Assembly: GCA_000739535.1 (NCBI GenBank)
Contig: DF820464.1
Coordinates: 878,174 to 910,441, forward strand
Length of the DNA stretch: 32,268 nt
Source of the DNA: Candidatus Vecturithrix granuli
Lineage (GTDB): Bacteria; Moduliflexota; Moduliflexia; Moduliflexales; Moduliflexaceae
Direction of reading: 5' to 3'
Both the position numbers and the translations under genes were made by a program. The notes below the pieces were generated by a model, which saw only the letters and a list, made by a program, of their open reading frames with translations, had not been told where the DNA came from and searched no databases. Shown piece by piece: positions 2,746 to 29,963 of this stretch; the stretch's first letter is position 1; each line of letters opens with the position of its first letter.

Positions 2746-5700
2746 ATGAAATCACTATTCAAATTTTTTACCGAACGACACCTGTTAGCGAATGCTCTAA
2801 CGATCATGATCTTACTGCTCGGCTCATATTCGCTTATGACGATGAATCGCGAGGAGTTTCCGAATGCCGATACAGGCGTAGTGACAATCTCAACGACGTA
2901 TTCTGGCGCATCCCCTGAAGATGTGGAACTCGAAGTGACCAATAAACTCGAAGATAAGCTCAAAAGTATTACCGGCATTAAGACGATAAGCTCTACCTCA
3001 GCAGAAAATAGTTCACGGATTGAAATTGAAATCGATGAAGATGAAGATCAGGATGAAGTGTATGATGAAATTGTGGAAACGGTGAATGGCGTAGATGATT
3101 TACCCCATGATGCCGATACGCCAAGGATTACCAAAATGAATCCGAAAATGAAGTCGATTTTAACGATCGGTTTTAGCAGCGGTCGTTTGAGTTACCGTGA
3201 GTTACGCGATTATGTGCATGACTTTGAGAAGAAACTGTTGCGAATTGACGGTGTGGCGGAAGTGAATCTTTCAGGCTATCTGGATCGTGAAGTGCGCATC
3301 GAAGTCTCCCCGGATAAACTGATGAAATACGGCGTCTCGCTCAATCAACTCGCAGAGGTGATTTCAGCCCGCAACATTCGTTCATCCGGCGGGTCAATAG
3401 ATACCCCTATTGATCAAAAAAATGTGATTACACTGGCGAAGTTTACCGATCCGGAGGAAGTCGGCGATGTCATTATCAAATCATACTCCAGCGGCGCAGA
3501 AGTTCGGGTGAAAGATGTCGCCACGATCTGCGATGGTTTTGAGGAGTCCGAAACCATCCAACGTATCAATGGGAAGCCAGCTATATCAGCCAGTGTGACC
3601 AAAAGCACCAGCGCAGATATTCTTCGGACCTCCGACGCGATCAAAGCCATGATCGCCGAAGAGCAAGCGACGCTGCCAGCGGATACTATTGAGTTTATGA
3701 TTACGCGCGATGATTCGACCGGCGTGCGCGATAAATTTGAGATTGTCAAATCAAATGGCGCAGTTGGCTTAATTCTCGTCTTTATCATACTGGCAATCTT
3801 CCTGAATATCCGCACCTCGTTTTGGGTGGCGATGGGAATTCCGGTCTCGCTGATGGGGACGCTCATACTGCTGCCGTTTTTTGATGTGGAGTTGGATAGC
3901 CTGACAATGGCCGCAATGGTGCTGGTGATTGGTATTATTGTGGACGATGCGATCGTAATCTCAGAAAATATCTTCCAACGCCGTGAGAAAGGAGAGTCCC
4001 CTCTGGAAGCAGCGGTCAATGGTGTGCATGAAGTCGCATTGCCGGTCTTTTCAACTGTTGCGACCACCGTGCTCGCTTTTATTCCGATGTTCTTTATCAC
4101 GGGGATGATGGGCAAGTTTCTCTATGTGGTTCCCCTGACCGTGATTATTGCACTAACCGTATCGATGCTGGAAGCCTATCTGATTCTTCCGGCGCACCTC
4201 ATGTCCAGCCTGATAAATACGAAGCAGCAGAAAGCCGGGCGTGACTGGTTTCGTCCGATTCGTCAGGGATTTGAACGTCTGGTCTCCAAGATGCTCTCCC
4301 TGCGTTATGTATGGCTGTTTCTGGCCGTAGCAATACTGGCCGGTTCGATTATTCATGCCACTGGTTCAATGAAGTTTGTCCTGATGGATCGCGGCAGTAA
4401 CGTAGAGTCTTTGGACATGACGTTAGAAATGCCATTGGGTACCGCTTTAGAGACGACTTCATCTAAAATGGAAGAAATTGAGGCGATTCTGTCCACCTTT
4501 CCTGGTACAGAAATAAGTGCATATACGACCACCATTGGGTCGGGCGGATGGCGGAGTGTCAGTAGTGGGCATTTAGCAACCATGACGATGTATCTTCCTC
4601 CTGCTTCCGAATTGGCCCGCCCGGTCAATGAGATTGTGGAAGACTTACGTCAGCAAATTGATGCCATTTCAGGCCCTCAAGAAGTGACAATTGGTATGAG
4701 CCTCAAAGGCCCGCCAACCGGCAATGCGGTAGAAATTCTGGTCAAGGGTGGGGATAAAAGCACCCGTAATGCGGCTGTGACTGATATTATGGCATTTCTC
4801 AAGACAGTTAACGGGGTTTCCGACCTCGAACGTGATGATAAATCTGGTAAGGATGAAATTATTATTCAACCCAAATATTCCCTGTTGGCGCGCTATGGGT
4901 TGACAGTCTCTGATCTGGCCCAGACTGTGAGAACAACGTATGAAGGACAAGAAGCGACCACCACACGCTACGGCGATGAAGATGTCAGCTTTAGCGTCAT
5001 CTTGCAGCCTGAATATCGTAAGAACCTCGACTACTTAAAAACGCTGAAAATCTCGAATGATCAGGGTGAATTGATTAATCTGGAGGAAGTGGCGGACTTT
5101 ACAATGCAGCCGGGTGTATATGCATTCTATCATGAAGATGCAGACCCGACAGTGACAATCACCGGTGAGATTGATGAGAACGTAACAACCTCGATAGAAG
5201 CCATGACGGCAGTGAAACAGGAATTTGATTTCGAAAAAATGCGCCAATATTCTGGCATCCAACTTGATGTCGGCGGAGAAGCCGCAGATTCCCGACAAGC
5301 CATTCAAGACCTGCTGATGAGTTTCGGACTTGCGGCAATCGGCATCTATTTTCTGCTCATGCTCCAGTTCAATTCCTTGACGCAGCCCTTTATCGTCCTG
5401 ATCACCATTCCTTTTGGCGTGGCCGGTGTGATTCTGGTAATGGCCTTGCACGGGATGACGCAGGCCTCTTTCTTTGCCGGAATTGGCGTGATCGGGCTGG
5501 CTGGAGTCGTAGTTAACGATGCCATCGTTATGGTGGATCATCTGAATGTCTTGATCCGCCGCAAAGATGAAAATATGGTCGCGCTAATTGCTGAAGGTGT
5601 AGCCGATCGTTTGCGTCCGGTGATTCTGACCACCGTGACCACCGTCTTCGGCTTGCTGCCTTTAACCTACGGCATCGGCGGTGAAGATACCATGATGGGA

Positions 5701-17074: not shown

Positions 17075-17263
17075 TATCGTGACGTAATCGAGTTTCTGCG
17101 TGACGTCCTGAATGTCAAGATGTCGATCGGCACCGGGCATAACATTGCCAAGGCTGTGGTGCCTGGTGTGCAGGACATCAATCAGGCACAAGACCTTTCC
17201 AACGTGCGTGTTGGCGTTCGTGATGAACTGTTTCAGGGGAGTCCCCCCATCCTGGCAGGCCCG

Positions 17264-17392
17264 GTGCAATATGATGGCACAGAAGATGGCGTGGCTGCTG
17301 AACTCGTTGCCGCAGGCATTCCCCACAACGCCATCGTGCTCGGCTTTCGCCCGCCGGAAGTCCGCCCGTTTACTGGTTTTGCCGTCGACTGA
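17264..17392 (+). pseudogene. C-terminal fragment of an XisI-like gene
   Basis: The translation VQYDGTEDGVAAELVAAGIP...VLGFRPPEVRPFTGFAVD matches the last ~43 residues of the intact XisI at 29628 (WIQRDGTEDGIARELEQAGIP...). The frame is open upstream to 17075 (YRDVIEFLRDVLNVKMSIG...), but that part does not align to XisI and I do not recognise it. The stretch is therefore a fusion of debris. No ribosome-binding site or XisH partner is nearby. Confidence 0.7.
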
Positions 17393-23968: not shown

Positions 23969-26311
23969 ATGGATACACCTGAAATCTTTATTTCATACAC
24001 CTGGCAAGGCGAAAGTCTCAAGATTACCGAAGCGTTAGACACTTTTTTGCAGGCGCGGGGCATCACTGTTGTCCGTGATAACCGGGATATTGGCTACAAA
24101 GGATTGATTAAGGAGTACATGCAACGGCTCGGCCAGGGCAAGTATGTCGTCGTCGTACTGAGCGACCAATACTTCACATCCAAAGACTGTATGTTCGAGT
24201 TGCTGCAACTGTCGCGGCAGGAAGGCTTTTACGACCGTATTTTCCCGATCACTGTCGAAGGTATCAGTATTTATGAAGCGGAAGATTTGCTCAGGTACGC
24301 CCGCTACTGGGATGAAAAAATCGCCCATCTACAGCAAGAGATTAAGAACACTGCCAATATCACCAACCTCCAGGGCATTACCGACGATCTCAACCTCTAT
24401 GTTGAAATCCGCCAGAATATCGCCAAATTAATAGACTTTCTGCGCAACATCAACACCCATCCCCTCAAAGGCTCGAATTTCGATCCATTATTGAAGGCCA
24501 TTCAGTCGAAAATCGCGCAAGACCAGGCCCTGTCCGCCGCGCCTGAAGAAGTCAGCCGGGCGACGGAAGCCACAACACCGGCACAGAGCAAGACAGTTGT
24601 GGTGATGTCAGGCGAAGGCCGGCGCTGGGCGTGTTTGATCGGCGCGAATGAGTATGATGAGGCAACGCTGCCGTCCCTGGCATATCCCGAAGCCAATGTG
24701 GACGCCTTCATCCGTGTTCTGGAGGATCAACAGCTTGGCGACTTCGATCAGGTGGTGGTGTTAAAAGGCAAAACCCACACGGAGATCATCCGGGAAATCA
24801 AGAGTTTGACCGGGCAGTTAACGCTCGCCGACCTGCTGCTGGTTTATTTTACGGGCTATGTCCTGCTGGACAAAGAGGAAACCGGCAAGCTCTATCTGCT
24901 CGGCGCAAGCAGTGACCCGGCGGATTTGCCCGGTTCCGCGATTGAATTAGGACGGATCAAAACCTTTCTGGACAAATCGGAAGCGGTACAAAAAATGCTG
25001 ATTCTGGACTGTCAGTATGGCGGCCAGACGCCGCCGTATCATCTCACGGATCCTGACCTGGTGCAAACCCAACTGGGGTGTGCACGCCAGGGCGCATATC
25101 TCATCAGCAACGCGGTGCAAGGAGCTGCCGGCAGCGCGGAGCCATCCGCCAGTTCTCTGACGCAATATCTGCTGGAAGGGCTGACGACCGGCAAGGCAGA
25201 CCTGGATCAGAACGGCAAGGTGACGGTGGATGAATGGTACACCTACGCGCAGCGCCAGATGGTTGACCGGAGCCTGCCCGAACCCTTGAAATGGGATCCC
25301 GGCACGGCCGGCAACTGGGTTGTGGCGCGCACTCCCGGAACGTCGGCGCAGACAGCGGCTATGCTGCCGGCCAGTCTGAAACGGAATTATAAATACATCA
25401 GCGACATGTTCCGCGATGGCAGCGTCATCCCCTTTTTAGGGTCGGAGATGGTGCTTCCCGCGGACCCCGCAGCCGTCGCCGAGGCCAGCGTCAACGAGCC
25501 ACCGCTGGAACGGGAGTTAGCGCAAAAAATGGCGGAGCAAGCGGAATTGCTGCAAACAGGCCAGTGTCATCCGCTGACTGTCATGTCTCAATACTACCAG
25601 ATGCAGGTCGTCGGCGCGCGTCCCCTCTTTTACAAACAATTGAAAAAGCTCTATCCCCAACACGTCCGCCCCGGTGCAATTCACCGCTTTCTGGCGCAGC
25701 AGGATCAACCGATGGTGGTGATCACCGCCAGTTATGATACGCTCCTGGAGCAGGTGTTCCGGGAACACGGCAAACCCTACGCGGTCGTGACCCATATCGC
25801 CTATGCCGAAGACGAAGGCAATCTCGGCAAAGTGGCGGTGTCATATTCGGATCGTCCTGACAACGCGGAAATCGGCCTGTCCGATGAATTGAGCATTGAT
25901 CTGGAAAAATGGTGGGTCTTTTACAAAATTCAGGGCACCTTCGACTTGTTTGTCAAAGGGTTGGCCGGCAAAGAGGAACTTGATTCGATTGTGATTTCCG
26001 AAGAGGATTACGTGGCCTGGCTCAGCCGCCTGAGCGACCAGCACCGGACGATTCCGACGCTGTTTCAGCGGGTGTTTCAACAACGCCTGTTCCTCTTTTT
26101 AGGCTACCGCATGTGCGACTGGAATTTCCGCACCCTCGTCCACATCTTGCGCAAAGACGAGAAAATCCGTAAAGTCAACGCCTACGCCGTGCGCCAAAAC
26201 GCCACGGATTTCGAGCGATCTTATTGGAAGAGCAAAAACGTGCAAATCCTTGATTTTGAAACTTCGGAGTTTATCCAGGGATTGGCAGAGGAAATGAATA
26301 TTCAGCTTTAA
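23969..26311 (+). CDS. TIR protein with degenerate caspase-like and SIR2-like domains
   Basis: 780 aa. Residues 4-160: TIR domain (IFISYTWQ, VVVVLSDQYFTSKDCMFELLQL) with the NADase-type glutamate Glu77 retained. About 217-455: caspase-like (C14) fold, WACLIGANEY, LLVYFTGYV and MLILDCQYGG. The usual His of YFSGHG is Tyr297 and the catalytic Cys of DCCxSG is Gln349, so it should not be a protease. DLDQNGKVTVDEWYTY (411-426) is the EF-hand-like insert common in bacterial caspases. About 475-775: SIR2-like domain, GSVIPFLGSEM, ITASYDTLLE, FYKIQGTFDL, FLGYRMCDWNFRTL. The NAD-binding Asn (TTNYD) is Ser588 and the catalytic His (KxHG) is Gln655. Only the TIR looks enzymatic; the other two domains may be sensors or scaffolds. 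No strong ribosome-binding site. The next gene is a STAND ATPase on the same strand. Confidence 0.82.
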   Translation: MDTPEIFISYTWQGESLKITEALDTFLQARGITVVRDNRDIGYKGLIKEYMQRLGQGKYVVVVLSDQYFTSKDCMFELLQLSRQEGFYDRIFPITVEGISIYEAEDLLRYARYWDEKIAHLQQEIKNTANITNLQGITDDLNLYVEIRQNIAKLIDFLRNINTHPLKGSNFDPLLKAIQSKIAQDQALSAAPEEVSRATEATTPAQSKTVVVMSGEGRRWACLIGANEYDEATLPSLAYPEANVDAFIRVLEDQQLGDFDQVVVLKGKTHTEIIREIKSLTGQLTLADLLLVYFTGYVLLDKEETGKLYLLGASSDPADLPGSAIELGRIKTFLDKSEAVQKMLILDCQYGGQTPPYHLTDPDLVQTQLGCARQGAYLISNAVQGAAGSAEPSASSLTQYLLEGLTTGKADLDQNGKVTVDEWYTYAQRQMVDRSLPEPLKWDPGTAGNWVVARTPGTSAQTAAMLPASLKRNYKYISDMFRDGSVIPFLGSEMVLPADPAAVAEASVNEPPLERELAQKMAEQAELLQTGQCHPLTVMSQYYQMQVVGARPLFYKQLKKLYPQHVRPGAIHRFLAQQDQPMVVITASYDTLLEQVFREHGKPYAVVTHIAYAEDEGNLGKVAVSYSDRPDNAEIGLSDELSIDLEKWWVFYKIQGTFDLFVKGLAGKEELDSIVISEEDYVAWLSRLSDQHRTIPTLFQRVFQQRLFLFLGYRMCDWNFRTLVHILRKDEKIRKVNAYAVRQNATDFERSYWKSKNVQILDFETSEFIQGLAEEMNIQL

Positions 26312-26694: not shown

Positions 26695-29004
26695 ATGCAG
26701 ATACAATCACCTTACAAAGGGCTTGCGCCGTATGATGTGGCGGATAAGGACAATTTCTTCGGACGCAAGCGCGAGACGCAGATTCTGCTCGGCAAAATCT
26801 TTGCCAACAACGTGACCCTCCTGTTCGCCGGCACCGGCGTGGGCAAAAGCTCGCTGCTGCGCGCCGCAATTTTCCCGGCTTTAACGGAACAACACGCGCT
26901 GGATGTGGTCTATTATGCGGACTGGGTGCGCGAGCCGCTGGAAGGACTCAAAACTACGATTCAGCAAACGCTCAGCGCCAACGGCAAAATCACGGGACGC
27001 GAACTCAAAAAAAACGACGAACTCCTGTCCTTTTTGACCACCTGTACCGCGTACGCCAGTGAACCCTTGATCCTGATGCTCGACCAGTTCGAAGAACTCT
27101 TCCAATATCATGCCCGTTCCGGCCGGCTGCGTCCGTTTGTGGAGCAGGTGGCGCGGGTCGTGAATACGCCGGACCTGCCGGTGAGCCTGGTTTTGTCCAT
27201 GCGCGAGGATTTTCTGGCCGAATTGAATATTTTCAAAGGCCGCATTCCCGGCTTATTCGACAACTACTACCGGCTGGAAGAGTTGCAAATCGAGCAGGCG
27301 CGCGAGGCGATTGAAAAGCCGCTTAAAAAGGTCGGTTTTCGCTATGAAGACGGCCTGGTTGAACAATTGTTGAACGACTTAGCGGCGCGGGAACAGTCGC
27401 GTCACGTGGAGGCCACCGCGGAAGGTGGACTCCACGTAACCGTCATGGAGTCTGTCGAGCCGCCCTATTTGCAAATCGTCTGCAATGAACTGTGGCGCGC
27501 GGAAAAGGACAATCCCCAAAAAGTCATCACTATGGCTCGCTATAACGCCTTAGGCCGCACAACGCAGATTGTCCGCAAGCACTTCGAGCAGGCCATGGCT
27601 CACTTTTCCTTGCGCGAACAGTCTTTAGCATTCGAGATGTTCCGTTATCTCGTGACCGAGCGGGGCACGAAAATGGCGTACCGGGCTGAGGATTTAGCCA
27701 GCGAACAACTGCTGGGCGTCCCTGTCAGCGAGTTGCAGCCGATTCTGGCGTATTTAGCGAGTAAAGAGGTACGCGTCCTGCGGGCCGATCAACGGCTGGA
27801 TCAGACTTGGTACGAACTCTATCACGATGTCTTTGCCCAGATTATCCGCGCCTGGAGCGAACAATTTCAAGCGGATGAAGATCGCCGCATTTACCGGCAG
27901 ATCAGCAGCGCGACCCGCAAATGGGCCAACGCTGGCCGCGACGAGACCTTGCTGCTGCGCGGGGCCGCGCTGTTGGAAAGCAAAGACTGGCAAAAGCGCA
28001 ACCGCATCGAGACGCTTTTGCCTGAAGAGCAAACCTTTCTCAAGCAAAGTTTGACCCAATATTACCGCGGCGTCTGGCTGCGCCGGGGGATTGTGGCCAT
28101 CATTGCGGTGTTTGCCGTCATCTCCGCTATCGCCGGCTTGTACGCCAATGCGCAGCGCAAGGAAGCCGAACATCAGTCGCGGCTCGGCCGCATTCGTTCG
28201 CTTATCGCTTACGCGTATAAGGATAATGTCGAGGAGCAACGCGAACGGGCGGCGTTGCTGGCGCGGCATGCGTACTTGCTGAACCAGCAGTATCACGGCA
28301 ATATGCAGCCGGAAATTCAGGTGGCGTTAGAGACGATTTTTGCCACGAAATTTATTACGAAGGAACCGTACGATCCTGATGTGGTGAAACAGGTCTGTCA
28401 GAAGGTGCATTTTAAGATCGCTTTAATAGACGAAGAATGGCGGCAATTTACCAACAATGTGCTGCCTTATAAACCGGCCTGCCCGGAATTGCAGCAGATT
28501 TATCCATTGCAGTTGCGCCGCGAGCCGATGACGGCGCGTGATTACATGGCGTTGTCGCTAAATATGGCGGACGCGGGCGGCTGGGGAATCCTGGCGCATG
28601 ATGTCGAGAACCAGTTTAAAGGCCGGGACGACGTAATTTTCGACAAGGCCACCGGGTTACTATGGGAGAAAGCGGGTTCGCCTAATGCATTAAACTACGC
28701 TGACGCCGAAGGCTATTGCGCCAATCTGACATTGACCGGGCATAAAGACTGGCGGCTGCCGACGATTGAGGAATTACTGTCGCTCATAGAACCAGAAAAA
28801 CAAGCCAATGGTTTCTATCTCGATCCCATTTTTGTTCTTCGAGAAGGAGTGAAGTACCCCTGGTATTGGAGCGCCGATATTCATCTAATAAAAGGCGAAG
28901 GTTCGGCGGAGTCGGCGTGGGGCGTCCTTTTCTACGACGGCATCGTGGACTGGGACGGCGTCCACCTCGGCGTCGACGTGCGTTGTGTGCGTGTCGGACA
29001 ATGA
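26695..29004 (+). CDS. nSTAND1 ATPase, membrane-anchored, with C-terminal DUF1566 lectin-like domain
   Basis: 769 aa. Residues 4-30: the SPYKGLAPYDVADKDNFFGR entry typical of nSTAND1. Walker A FAGTGVGKSS (Lys51), Walker B LILMLDQFEELF (Asp130). A helical region follows to about 455, one transmembrane helix at 464-484 (GIVAIIAVFAVISAIAGLYA), and a long linker. A DUF1566 domain covers about 640-769 (VIFDKATGLLWEKAGS, YADAEGYCANLTLTGHKDWRLPTIEELLSLI, YPWYWSAD, VRCVRVG). STAND ATPases oligomerise on ligand binding and trigger effectors; DUF1566 is a C-type-lectin-like ligand binder and a frequent DGR target. Codons 743-761 carry a DGR-like mutation signature (see 28921-28998). The likely partner or effector is the TIR protein upstream. 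No ribosome-binding site is visible. Confidence 0.88.
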   Translation: MQIQSPYKGLAPYDVADKDNFFGRKRETQILLGKIFANNVTLLFAGTGVGKSSLLRAAIFPALTEQHALDVVYYADWVREPLEGLKTTIQQTLSANGKITGRELKKNDELLSFLTTCTAYASEPLILMLDQFEELFQYHARSGRLRPFVEQVARVVNTPDLPVSLVLSMREDFLAELNIFKGRIPGLFDNYYRLEELQIEQAREAIEKPLKKVGFRYEDGLVEQLLNDLAAREQSRHVEATAEGGLHVTVMESVEPPYLQIVCNELWRAEKDNPQKVITMARYNALGRTTQIVRKHFEQAMAHFSLREQSLAFEMFRYLVTERGTKMAYRAEDLASEQLLGVPVSELQPILAYLASKEVRVLRADQRLDQTWYELYHDVFAQIIRAWSEQFQADEDRRIYRQISSATRKWANAGRDETLLLRGAALLESKDWQKRNRIETLLPEEQTFLKQSLTQYYRGVWLRRGIVAIIAVFAVISAIAGLYANAQRKEAEHQSRLGRIRSLIAYAYKDNVEEQRERAALLARHAYLLNQQYHGNMQPEIQVALETIFATKFITKEPYDPDVVKQVCQKVHFKIALIDEEWRQFTNNVLPYKPACPELQQIYPLQLRREPMTARDYMALSLNMADAGGWGILAHDVENQFKGRDDVIFDKATGLLWEKAGSPNALNYADAEGYCANLTLTGHKDWRLPTIEELLSLIEPEKQANGFYLDPIFVLREGVKYPWYWSADIHLIKGEGSAESAWGVLFYDGIVDWDGVHLGVDVRCVRVGQ
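28921..28998 (+). other. Putative DGR variable region (VR) at the 3' end of the STAND gene
   Basis: Sixteen of the 19 codons for residues 743-761 end in C with differing first and second bases: ggc gtc ttc tac gac ggc atc gac gac ggc gtc cac ctc ggc gtc gac. DGRs mutate template adenines, and AAC codons become NNC. DUF1566 proteins normally read roughly FNNGNVNWNNKNNN-YVRCVR here; this one reads FYDGIVDWDGVHLGVDVRCVR, with substitutions at the Asn positions. The A-free gtgcgttgtgtgcgtgtc at its end would be the invariant IMH-like boundary. Confidence 0.65.
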
Positions 29005-29040
29005 TTTGGTCATTTGAATAATTTGATTATTTTGGGGGGT

Positions 29041-29061
29041 ACAGGGGGGCTTCCCCCCTGT
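29041..29061. other. GC-rich hairpin 3' of the variable region
   Basis: The perfect stem acagggggg/cccccctgt has a 3-nt loop and lies 36 bp after the STAND stop. DGR target genes often carry a GC-rich hairpin or cruciform just downstream of the IMH that promotes retrohoming. It could alternatively act as a terminator (a T-run follows at 29071-29076). Confidence 0.6.
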
Positions 29062-29089
29062 CGAAAAATTTTTTTTGAGGGGTTTTGTT

Positions 29090-29119
29090 ATGGCGCGCTA
29101 CGAACATTTACCGATATGA
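29090..29119 (+). pseudogene. Truncated avd-like start (DGR accessory, four-helix bundle)
   Basis: GAGGGG is followed by an ATG encoding MARYEHLPI and then TGA. This is the characteristic N-terminus of Avd / four-helix-bundle proteins (M.RYEHLPIY). In the +1 frame YEFRAF continues briefly, without further similarity. In DGR cassettes avd commonly lies between the variable gene and the TR/RT. Here only the first nine codons remain, and 29120-29223 holds nothing else recognisable. Confidence 0.55.
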
Positions 29120-29223
29120 GTTTCGGGCTTTTGCCCTGAAAGAGCGAAAAACCCATAGCTGTGTAGAACGTGAGTATTGACAATTTGCTCAGCAATCGTT
29201 ATTTTTAGAAACGGAGGGGAGAT

Positions 29224-29640
29224 ATGCCGGCCAAAGATATTTATCATGAGACTGTCAAAAAGGCGTTAATCAAGGATGGCTGGGTGATTACCCATGAGCC
29301 GCTGCCGCTGAAATGGGGTAGAAAAGACCTGTATGTGGATTTGGGGGCGGAAAAATTATTGTTGGCCGAAAAAATCGGCCGCAAAATTGCGGTTGAGGTC
29401 AAAAGTTTTGTCAGCCCTTCGGAAATCGAGGATTTGAAAAATGCGCTCGGCAGTTATCTCCTCTACTCTGATGTATTGGAACAGATCGAACCGGACCGGG
29501 AATTATATTTGGCAATCCGCAAAGCAGTGTATTTTGATCTGTTCGAAGAATCAATCGGTCAATTGCTGCTTCAACATCATCACGTCCGCATCCTGGTTTT
29601 TGATCAGCATCACGAGGAGGTTGTGCAATGGATACCATAG
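29224..29640 (+). CDS. xisH: XisH-family protein
   Basis: 138 aa, full length for the family, with ACGGAGGGGAG upstream. MPAKDIYHETVKKALIKDGWVITHEPL is the family N-terminus. GRKDLYVDLGAEKLLLAEK...KIAVEVKSF gives the D...ExK arrangement of an endonuclease-like fold (Asp at 36-40, Glu-Val-Lys near 58-60). XisH was first described as needed, with XisI, for excision of the fdxN element in heterocystous cyanobacteria. It is now seen widely, always paired with XisI, and a conflict or toxin-antitoxin-like role is suspected. Its end overlaps xisI by 13 bp. Confidence 0.92.
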   Translation: MPAKDIYHETVKKALIKDGWVITHEPLPLKWGRKDLYVDLGAEKLLLAEKIGRKIAVEVKSFVSPSEIEDLKNALGSYLLYSDVLEQIEPDRELYLAIRKAVYFDLFEESIGQLLLQHHHVRILVFDQHHEEVVQWIP

Positions 29641-29963
29641 AAACCTATCGCCGCATTATTCAAGAGGTGTTACGTCCATACAGCCAGATTACATACGCCA
29701 AGGGCGAGATCCACAATGAAACCGTCTTTGATCCGCAGCATGACCGCTATCTCGTGGTCTCGGTGGGTTGGGATGACGTGCGCCGCATTCACGGCTGCCT
29801 GTTGCATGTCGAAATTCTGGATGGCAAGGTCTGGATTCAACGGGACGGCACCGAGGATGGCATTGCGCGGGAATTAGAGCAAGCCGGGATTCCGAAAGCG
29901 CAGATTGTGTTAGGCTTTCATGAGCCGGATGTGCGCCCCTATACCGGCTATGCCGTGGCATAA
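29628..29963 (+). CDS. xisI: XisI-family protein
   Basis: 111 aa, full length. GAGGAGG inside the end of xisH drives the start, and the 13-bp overlap couples the two. Motifs: ETYRRIIQEVL, FDPQHDRYLVVSVGWDDVRRIHGCLLHVEI, KVWIQRDGTEDGIA, AGIPKAQIVLGFHEPDVRPYTGYAVA. XisI probably binds and controls the nuclease-like XisH. A degraded second copy of its C-terminal third is at 17264-17392, showing that such pairs have come and gone in this genome. Confidence 0.92.
   Translation: MDTIETYRRIIQEVLRPYSQITYAKGEIHNETVFDPQHDRYLVVSVGWDDVRRIHGCLLHVEILDGKVWIQRDGTEDGIARELEQAGIPKAQIVLGFHEPDVRPYTGYAVA

What the first reader, a model, noticed from the sequence alone, without database searches (positions are those of the whole stretch)
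29005..29223. Decayed DGR cassette: hairpin and broken avd without RT or TR
Directly after the variable region come a 9-bp GC hairpin and nine codons of an Avd-like start ending in TGA. The order VR gene, hairpin, avd matches DGR loci, yet TR and reverse transcriptase are missing and xisHI follows. The VR may be frozen, or served in trans by another DGR.
Basis: partly seen in the sequence, partly recalled or inferred. Interest (0 to 1): 0.72.

Follow-up and report, generated by a model that had tools for sequence, protein, structure and literature searches.

The report
Retroelement target gene without its retroelement
Behind an intact bacterial sensor gene with a hypervariable tail sit the landing marks and first nine codons of the mutating retroelement that once served it, but the template and reverse transcriptase are gone; this cut-off arrangement turns out to be common, and a short repeat array in front of the hairpin marks such target genes across many bacteria.

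Summary
Directly after the VR of an intact nSTAND1-Lcl_C gene (26695-29004) lie a 9-bp GC hairpin (29041-29061) and a nine-codon avd start, MARYEHLPI-TGA (29090-29119); neither TR nor RT follows, and xisHI does. MARYEHLPI is not chance: in 85,000 species genomes it occurs at 112 loci, nearly all recognisable Avd starts. Of 104 decidable starts, 62 are near-complete avd genes (43 with an RT within 3.5 kb) and 42 are truncated, 41 of them without an RT. So 'VR, hairpin, avd stub, no RT' is a recurrent degenerate DGR locus, a kind already described. The host genome has five cousin VR loci. Three share one unseen TR: 21 of 22 variable columns are adenines of a fourth locus's TR. No TR within 3 non-A mismatches of the window's VR was found in the assembly, nor an Avd or RT of the matching type, so this VR is most likely frozen, or served by an unassembled DGR. 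Long arrays occur in the sequence examined almost only behind DGR target genes. I found no description of this array.

The parts
26695..29004 (+). Intact DGR target gene, 769 aa: nSTAND1 NTPase and C-terminal Lcl_C domain carrying the VR
   Evidence: Pfam nSTAND1 4.6e-54 and Lcl_C 1.9e-19; open reading frame
28902..29006 (+). Variable region (VR): differs from the cousin TR at 18 of 30 adenines and 9 of 73 other positions
   Evidence: Fisher p 1.9e-6; no exact cognate TR in the assembly
29005..29034 (+). Array of TTYG units spaced 8-9 nt (TTTGGTCA TTTGAATAA TTTGATTA TTTTG)
   Evidence: in the own-genome loci read, only at VR genes; 37 of 103 avd starts carry one, none in reverse orientation
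29041..29061 (+). Post-VR GC hairpin, 9-bp stem, CTT loop
29090..29119 (+). avd stub: MARYEHLPI then TGA; homology to Avd ends here
29120..29223 (.). Sequence not related to avd or to DGRs, with a promoter-like site (29177-29205) for xisH
   Evidence: no repeat family found in the own genome; promoter scan
29224..29963 (+). xisH (29224-29640) and xisI (29628-29963), a neighbouring operon
   Evidence: Pfam XisH 3.3e-54 and XisI 6.7e-44

Best explanation
This is a degenerate DGR locus, a detached target gene. An nSTAND1-Lcl_C sensor gene keeps its VR and the target-side marks (TTYG array, GC hairpin) plus nine codons of avd; the rest of the core (avd, TR, RT) was deleted, or never came along when the 3' module was copied. 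Shown: the identity of each part, the absence of a cognate TR, avd or RT in the assembly, and that its cousins were adenine-diversified from a shared TR. Inferred: the VR was diversified earlier and is now most likely frozen, because no assembled TR fits it and its non-adenine positions differ from both cousin TR classes.
For: Avd start at the canonical place after VR and hairpin. VR-hairpin-avd-TR-RT order verified at intact loci by TR/VR adenine mismatches. 41 of 42 truncated avd starts have no RT downstream, and only 5 of 39 genomes searched for such stubs have a recognisable DGR RT anywhere. No TR within 3 non-A mismatches in the own genome, no bAvd, and only two DGR-type RTs, with a different (SUMF-type) TR. 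Window VR core has 4 of 50 non-A mismatches to class 2 and 6 of 50 to TR1, against 0-1 for the cousins to their own class.
Against: The assembly is 93.8% complete with runs of N next to its DGR RTs and behind one cousin VR, so a matching DGR could be hidden. The target gene is intact and nearly all its TR-Asn codons are diversified, as in an active VR. The hairpin loop is CTT, not the GRNA of Guo et al. 2011, though cousin loci share CTT-type loops. TR1 is a cousin's TR, so the mismatch counts for this VR are indirect.
Confidence: 0.7

Rival explanations
1. The VR is still diversified in trans by a DGR of the same organism whose TR and RT lie in unassembled sequence; the avd stub is only leftover.
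For: Three cousin VR loci on different contigs vary at 22 columns, 21 of them adenines of a cousin TR, which implies one TR acting on several loci in trans. The C10 locus holds a TR without an RT beside it. Trans diversification is reported for Thiohalocapsa (PMC10907252). N runs adjoin the DGR RTs.
Against: No TR fits within 3 non-A mismatches. The two assembled DGR RTs have SUMF-type TRs, and no RT of the MARYEHLPI clade is present. The 3' end of the VR differs at non-A positions from both cousin classes.
Confidence: 0.25
2. Assembly artefact: an intact avd-TR-RT was collapsed out of the contig at the stub.
For: DGR repeats are hard to assemble. In Thiohalocapsa intact and degraded variants coexist (PMC10907252).
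Against: No N run or repeat at the junction; 29120-29223 is unique sequence carrying the promoter-like site of xisH. The same kind of truncation recurs in many independent assemblies.
Confidence: 0.04
3. Chance resemblance: an ordinary terminator followed by a random short reading frame.
For: Nearly the same hairpin stands once behind a non-VR gene (C16:307981).
Against: 112 independent MARYEHLPI loci, nearly all Avd. The other matches of the hairpin pattern are all at VR loci, and the T-run does not follow the stem directly.
Confidence: 0.01

Closest known systems
Degenerate and remote DGR loci of multicellular bacteria (Thiohalocapsa PB-PSB1, PMC10907252)
   Same: STAND or TIR-linked target gene with a C-terminal lectin-type VR domain; core machinery missing or pseudogenised; several loci per genome
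   Different: Here a nine-codon avd stub remains, no intact class member is assembled, and no MITE or transposon was found at the break
BPP-1 DGR target site (Guo et al. 2011, PMC3240598)
   Same: GC-rich stem of 7-10 bp shortly after VR, whose structure matters more than its sequence
   Different: Loop CTT instead of GRNA; a TTYG array lies between VR and hairpin; no avd-TR-RT follows
Remote variable proteins of cyanobacteria (PMC7517822)
   Same: Dispersed lectin-domain paralogues far from an RT, with signalling or STAND-like N-termini
   Different: Adenine-patterned variation among the dispersed copies is shown here, but the serving TR is not found

Membership tests
Complete diversity-generating retroelement | Reverse transcriptase at the locus | tested here: not met
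   No RT in the window; nearest RVT_1 match on the contig is about 81 kb away and reads as a split group II-type RT
Complete diversity-generating retroelement | Template repeat matching the VR except at adenines | tested here: not met
   No match with up to 3 non-A mismatches in the own genome assembly
Complete diversity-generating retroelement | Accessory protein Avd | tested here: not met
   Only nine codons remain; no PF22296 match in the own genome
DGR target (VR) locus | Adenine-specific variation in the 3' end of a lectin-type target gene | tested here: met
   18 of 30 adenines against 9 of 73 other positions changed relative to the cousin TR; Lcl_C domain
DGR target (VR) locus | GC-rich hairpin of 7-10 bp downstream of VR | tested here: met
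   9-bp stem 29041-29061, shared with cousins
DGR target (VR) locus | GRNA tetraloop on the sense strand | tested here: not met
   Loop CTT; loops vary widely in this clade; consensus from PMC3240598
Avd (bAvd-like) | Conserved N-terminus at the expected place | tested here: met
   Nine of nine residues as in L086, L135, L107, L138, 49 bp after the hairpin start
Actively diversifying DGR target | Population variation at adenine sites | not testable with these tools
   Needs sequencing reads

The most novel reading that the evidence does not exclude
The TTYG array (units of 8-9 nt, always on the sense strand, between the target gene's stop codon and the GC hairpin) is an undescribed target-side recognition element of a widespread DGR clade. 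It marks VRs and not TRs, and is kept, with the hairpin, when target genes spread without the core.
Probability: 0.4. Interest if true: 0.65.

Novelty: new member of a known kind. Interest (0 to 1): 0.45.

Why it matters
Degenerate DGR loci show how hypervariable immune-type sensors spread and freeze. The survey shows that cut-off avd starts are about two fifths of all decidable MARYEHLPI starts, so they are a normal fate and not an oddity. The TTYG array with the hairpin gives a simple sequence mark for DGR target genes that needs neither TR nor RT, and a directly testable candidate for target recognition.

Tried and rejected
Chance MARYEHLPI and ordinary terminator: rejected. Service by the two assembled DGR RTs: their TRs encode a SUMF-type repeat, unlike this VR. 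Service by the C10 TR: 9 of 73 non-A mismatches. MITE or transposon at the break: no repeat family in the own genome (best other hit 20 exact bases, E 0.005). XisHI as a DGR partner: no literature support and no XisHI among the 112 avd loci; other xis genes near VR loci (L045, L046) may be coincidence. VR 3' end in viral contigs: no match. RTs on C3, C16 and C20:991k look like group II intron-type or broken ones.

Full report
What is there. The finding lies directly behind an intact 769-aa gene (26695-29004) with an nSTAND1 NTPase and a C-terminal Lcl_C domain. From 5' to 3' the stretch holds the last bases of the VR, a TTYG array (29005-29034), a 9-bp GC hairpin (29041-29061), a CGAAAAATTTTTTTT run and a Shine-Dalgarno-like GAGGGG, ATG-MARYEHLPI-TGA (29090-29119), about 100 bp of unrelated sequence with a promoter-like site at 29177-29205, then xisH and xisI. 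There is no TR or RT.

Is the avd stub real? A degenerate pattern for MARYEHLPI-Y found one viral contig (L086) with VR gene, avd, TR and RT in order (bAvd and Lcl_C confirmed by Pfam), and the MARYEHLPI pattern found 112 loci in one-genome-per-species contigs. Nearly all continue as Avd (IYKxALDxAVHFExVVxGFSRYHKYTLGTELR). With an Avd profile built from the complete ones, 62 starts reach three quarters of the profile and 42 do not, although at least 900 nt follow; 43 of the 62 but only 1 of the 42 have an RT within 3.5 kb. The last retained Avd residue in truncated copies ranges from 9 to 92, with most at 36 or less. One, L160, stops at the same codon as the window. In intact loci the order VR, avd, TR, RT was verified by adenine-only TR/VR mismatches.

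Are such stubs served in trans? A profile of RTs from intact loci found a match in only 5 of 39 genomes searched. Many of these are incomplete MAGs, so this is a lower bound, but it suggests that most such loci are relics. A few of the 41 loci given to that search (L095, L097, L142, L148) were added by eye and are not in the list of 42.

The host genome. The genome (8.4 Mb, 21 contigs, 93.8% complete, 10.8% contamination) has fifteen Lcl_C genes. Six share the VR and the array (one unit altered in C19), and five of these an intact hairpin: the window, C10:171k, C15:232k, C19:66k, C21:600k; in the sixth, C10:9k, the hairpin is interrupted by an insertion. A seventh Lcl_C gene, C21:770950, has a similar array and hairpin behind it. 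C10:171131-171235 is a TR, differing from the VR beside it at 12 adenines and 1 other position, but with no RT next to it. The VRs on C15, C19 and C21 differ from one another at 22 columns, 21 of them adenines of that TR. They were therefore diversified from one shared TR, which is not in the assembly. The window VR differs from the C10 TR at 18 adenines and 9 other positions (Fisher p 1.9e-6) and fits no assembled TR. In the VR core its non-adenine mismatches to class 2 (4 of 50) lie between the intact-hairpin cousins (0-1 of 50 to their own class) and the copies with broken or missing hairpins (6-20 of 50); this is suggestive, with few copies. The only DGR-type RTs (C14:235k, C19:594k) sit beside SUMF-type TRs, and no RT or Avd of the MARYEHLPI clade is present. 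N runs next to these loci limit the claim.

The hairpin. Three cousins share the hairpin with a CTTG loop; in C21 both arms changed together, and a same-family genome has a different GC hairpin at the same place. Guo et al. 2011 (PMC3240598) showed for BPP-1 that stem structure downstream of VR is needed, while the GRNA loop matters too; the GRNA loop is absent here. The T-run starts 7 nt after the stem, so the scan does not call a terminator, though one copy of the hairpin stands behind a non-VR gene and some terminator role is possible.

The TTYG array. Units TTYGRTNA (8 nt) and TTYGRGYGA-like (9 nt) lie between stop codon and hairpin. Spacing peaks at 8, 9 and 16-18 nt; at least three units in phase occur before 37 of 104 avd starts against 8 of 1897 random stretches of the same loci, always in sense orientation (37 forward, 0 reverse of 103). 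Arrays of four or more units occur in 308 kb of fetched own-genome loci only at VR genes, counting duplicate loci once, with none in shuffles of the avd loci. In the avd loci 21 of 25 lie before the avd start; of the other four, three follow other VR-type genes and one follows a gene with a PEP-CTERM-like end. The array stays next to the hairpin even where the VR lies about 200-300 bp upstream. No such array was seen beside a TR. I found no description in the papers searched, but the search covers open-access papers only. The motif was first noticed by eye in these same loci, so the counts are descriptive and not an independent test; the own-genome cousins also share ancestry. Function is inferred: target marking is my leading guess, a slippage-made spacer the rival.

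Context. The upstream gene (23969-26311) has TIR and SIR2 domains, so target and neighbour fit the STAND/TIR conflict systems that DGRs diversify in multicellular bacteria (PMC10907252, PMC7159879). Degenerate DGR loci and trans service are described there, hence 'new member of a known kind'. What is added here is the survey of avd stubs and the array.

Noticed in passing
window 29005-29034 and the loci: Sense-strand array of TTYG units spaced 8-9 nt between DGR target gene stop codon and hairpin, highly specific to such genes; role unknown.
   Followed up: partly
L042 8133-8235 (C10:171131-171235, minus strand): A template repeat with its VR about 500 bp upstream but no avd or RT beside it: an orphan TR-VR pair.
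   Followed up: partly
L046 9206-9400 (C10:9k): Cousin VR locus in which an insertion splits the post-VR hairpin; its VR is the most diverged of the six.
   Followed up: partly
window 17120-17392: Reading frame resembling the end of XisI (GIPHNAIVLGFRPPEVRPFTGFAVD): a probable second, decayed xisI in the window.
   Followed up: no
L045 7534-7842; L046 13192-13622: xisI behind the C21 VR locus and xisH-xisI about 4 kb behind the C10:9k VR locus; may be coincidence in a genome with several xisHI copies.
   Followed up: no
L099, minus strand, about position 3000 of the reverse complement: A target gene whose VR is almost all asparagine codons (NANNTNNAWCVNFNNGNDNNNNK), like a freshly copied, unmutated TR.
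   Followed up: no
L105, L119, L138, L173 and others: Upstream genes with PEP-CTERM-like arginine-rich ends; where a TR was matched, the VR is internal, about 250-290 bp before avd.
   Followed up: partly
window 23969-26311: TIR plus SIR2 protein with a caspase-like middle part by eye, next to the nSTAND1 target gene; a likely defence or cell-death effector.
   Followed up: partly
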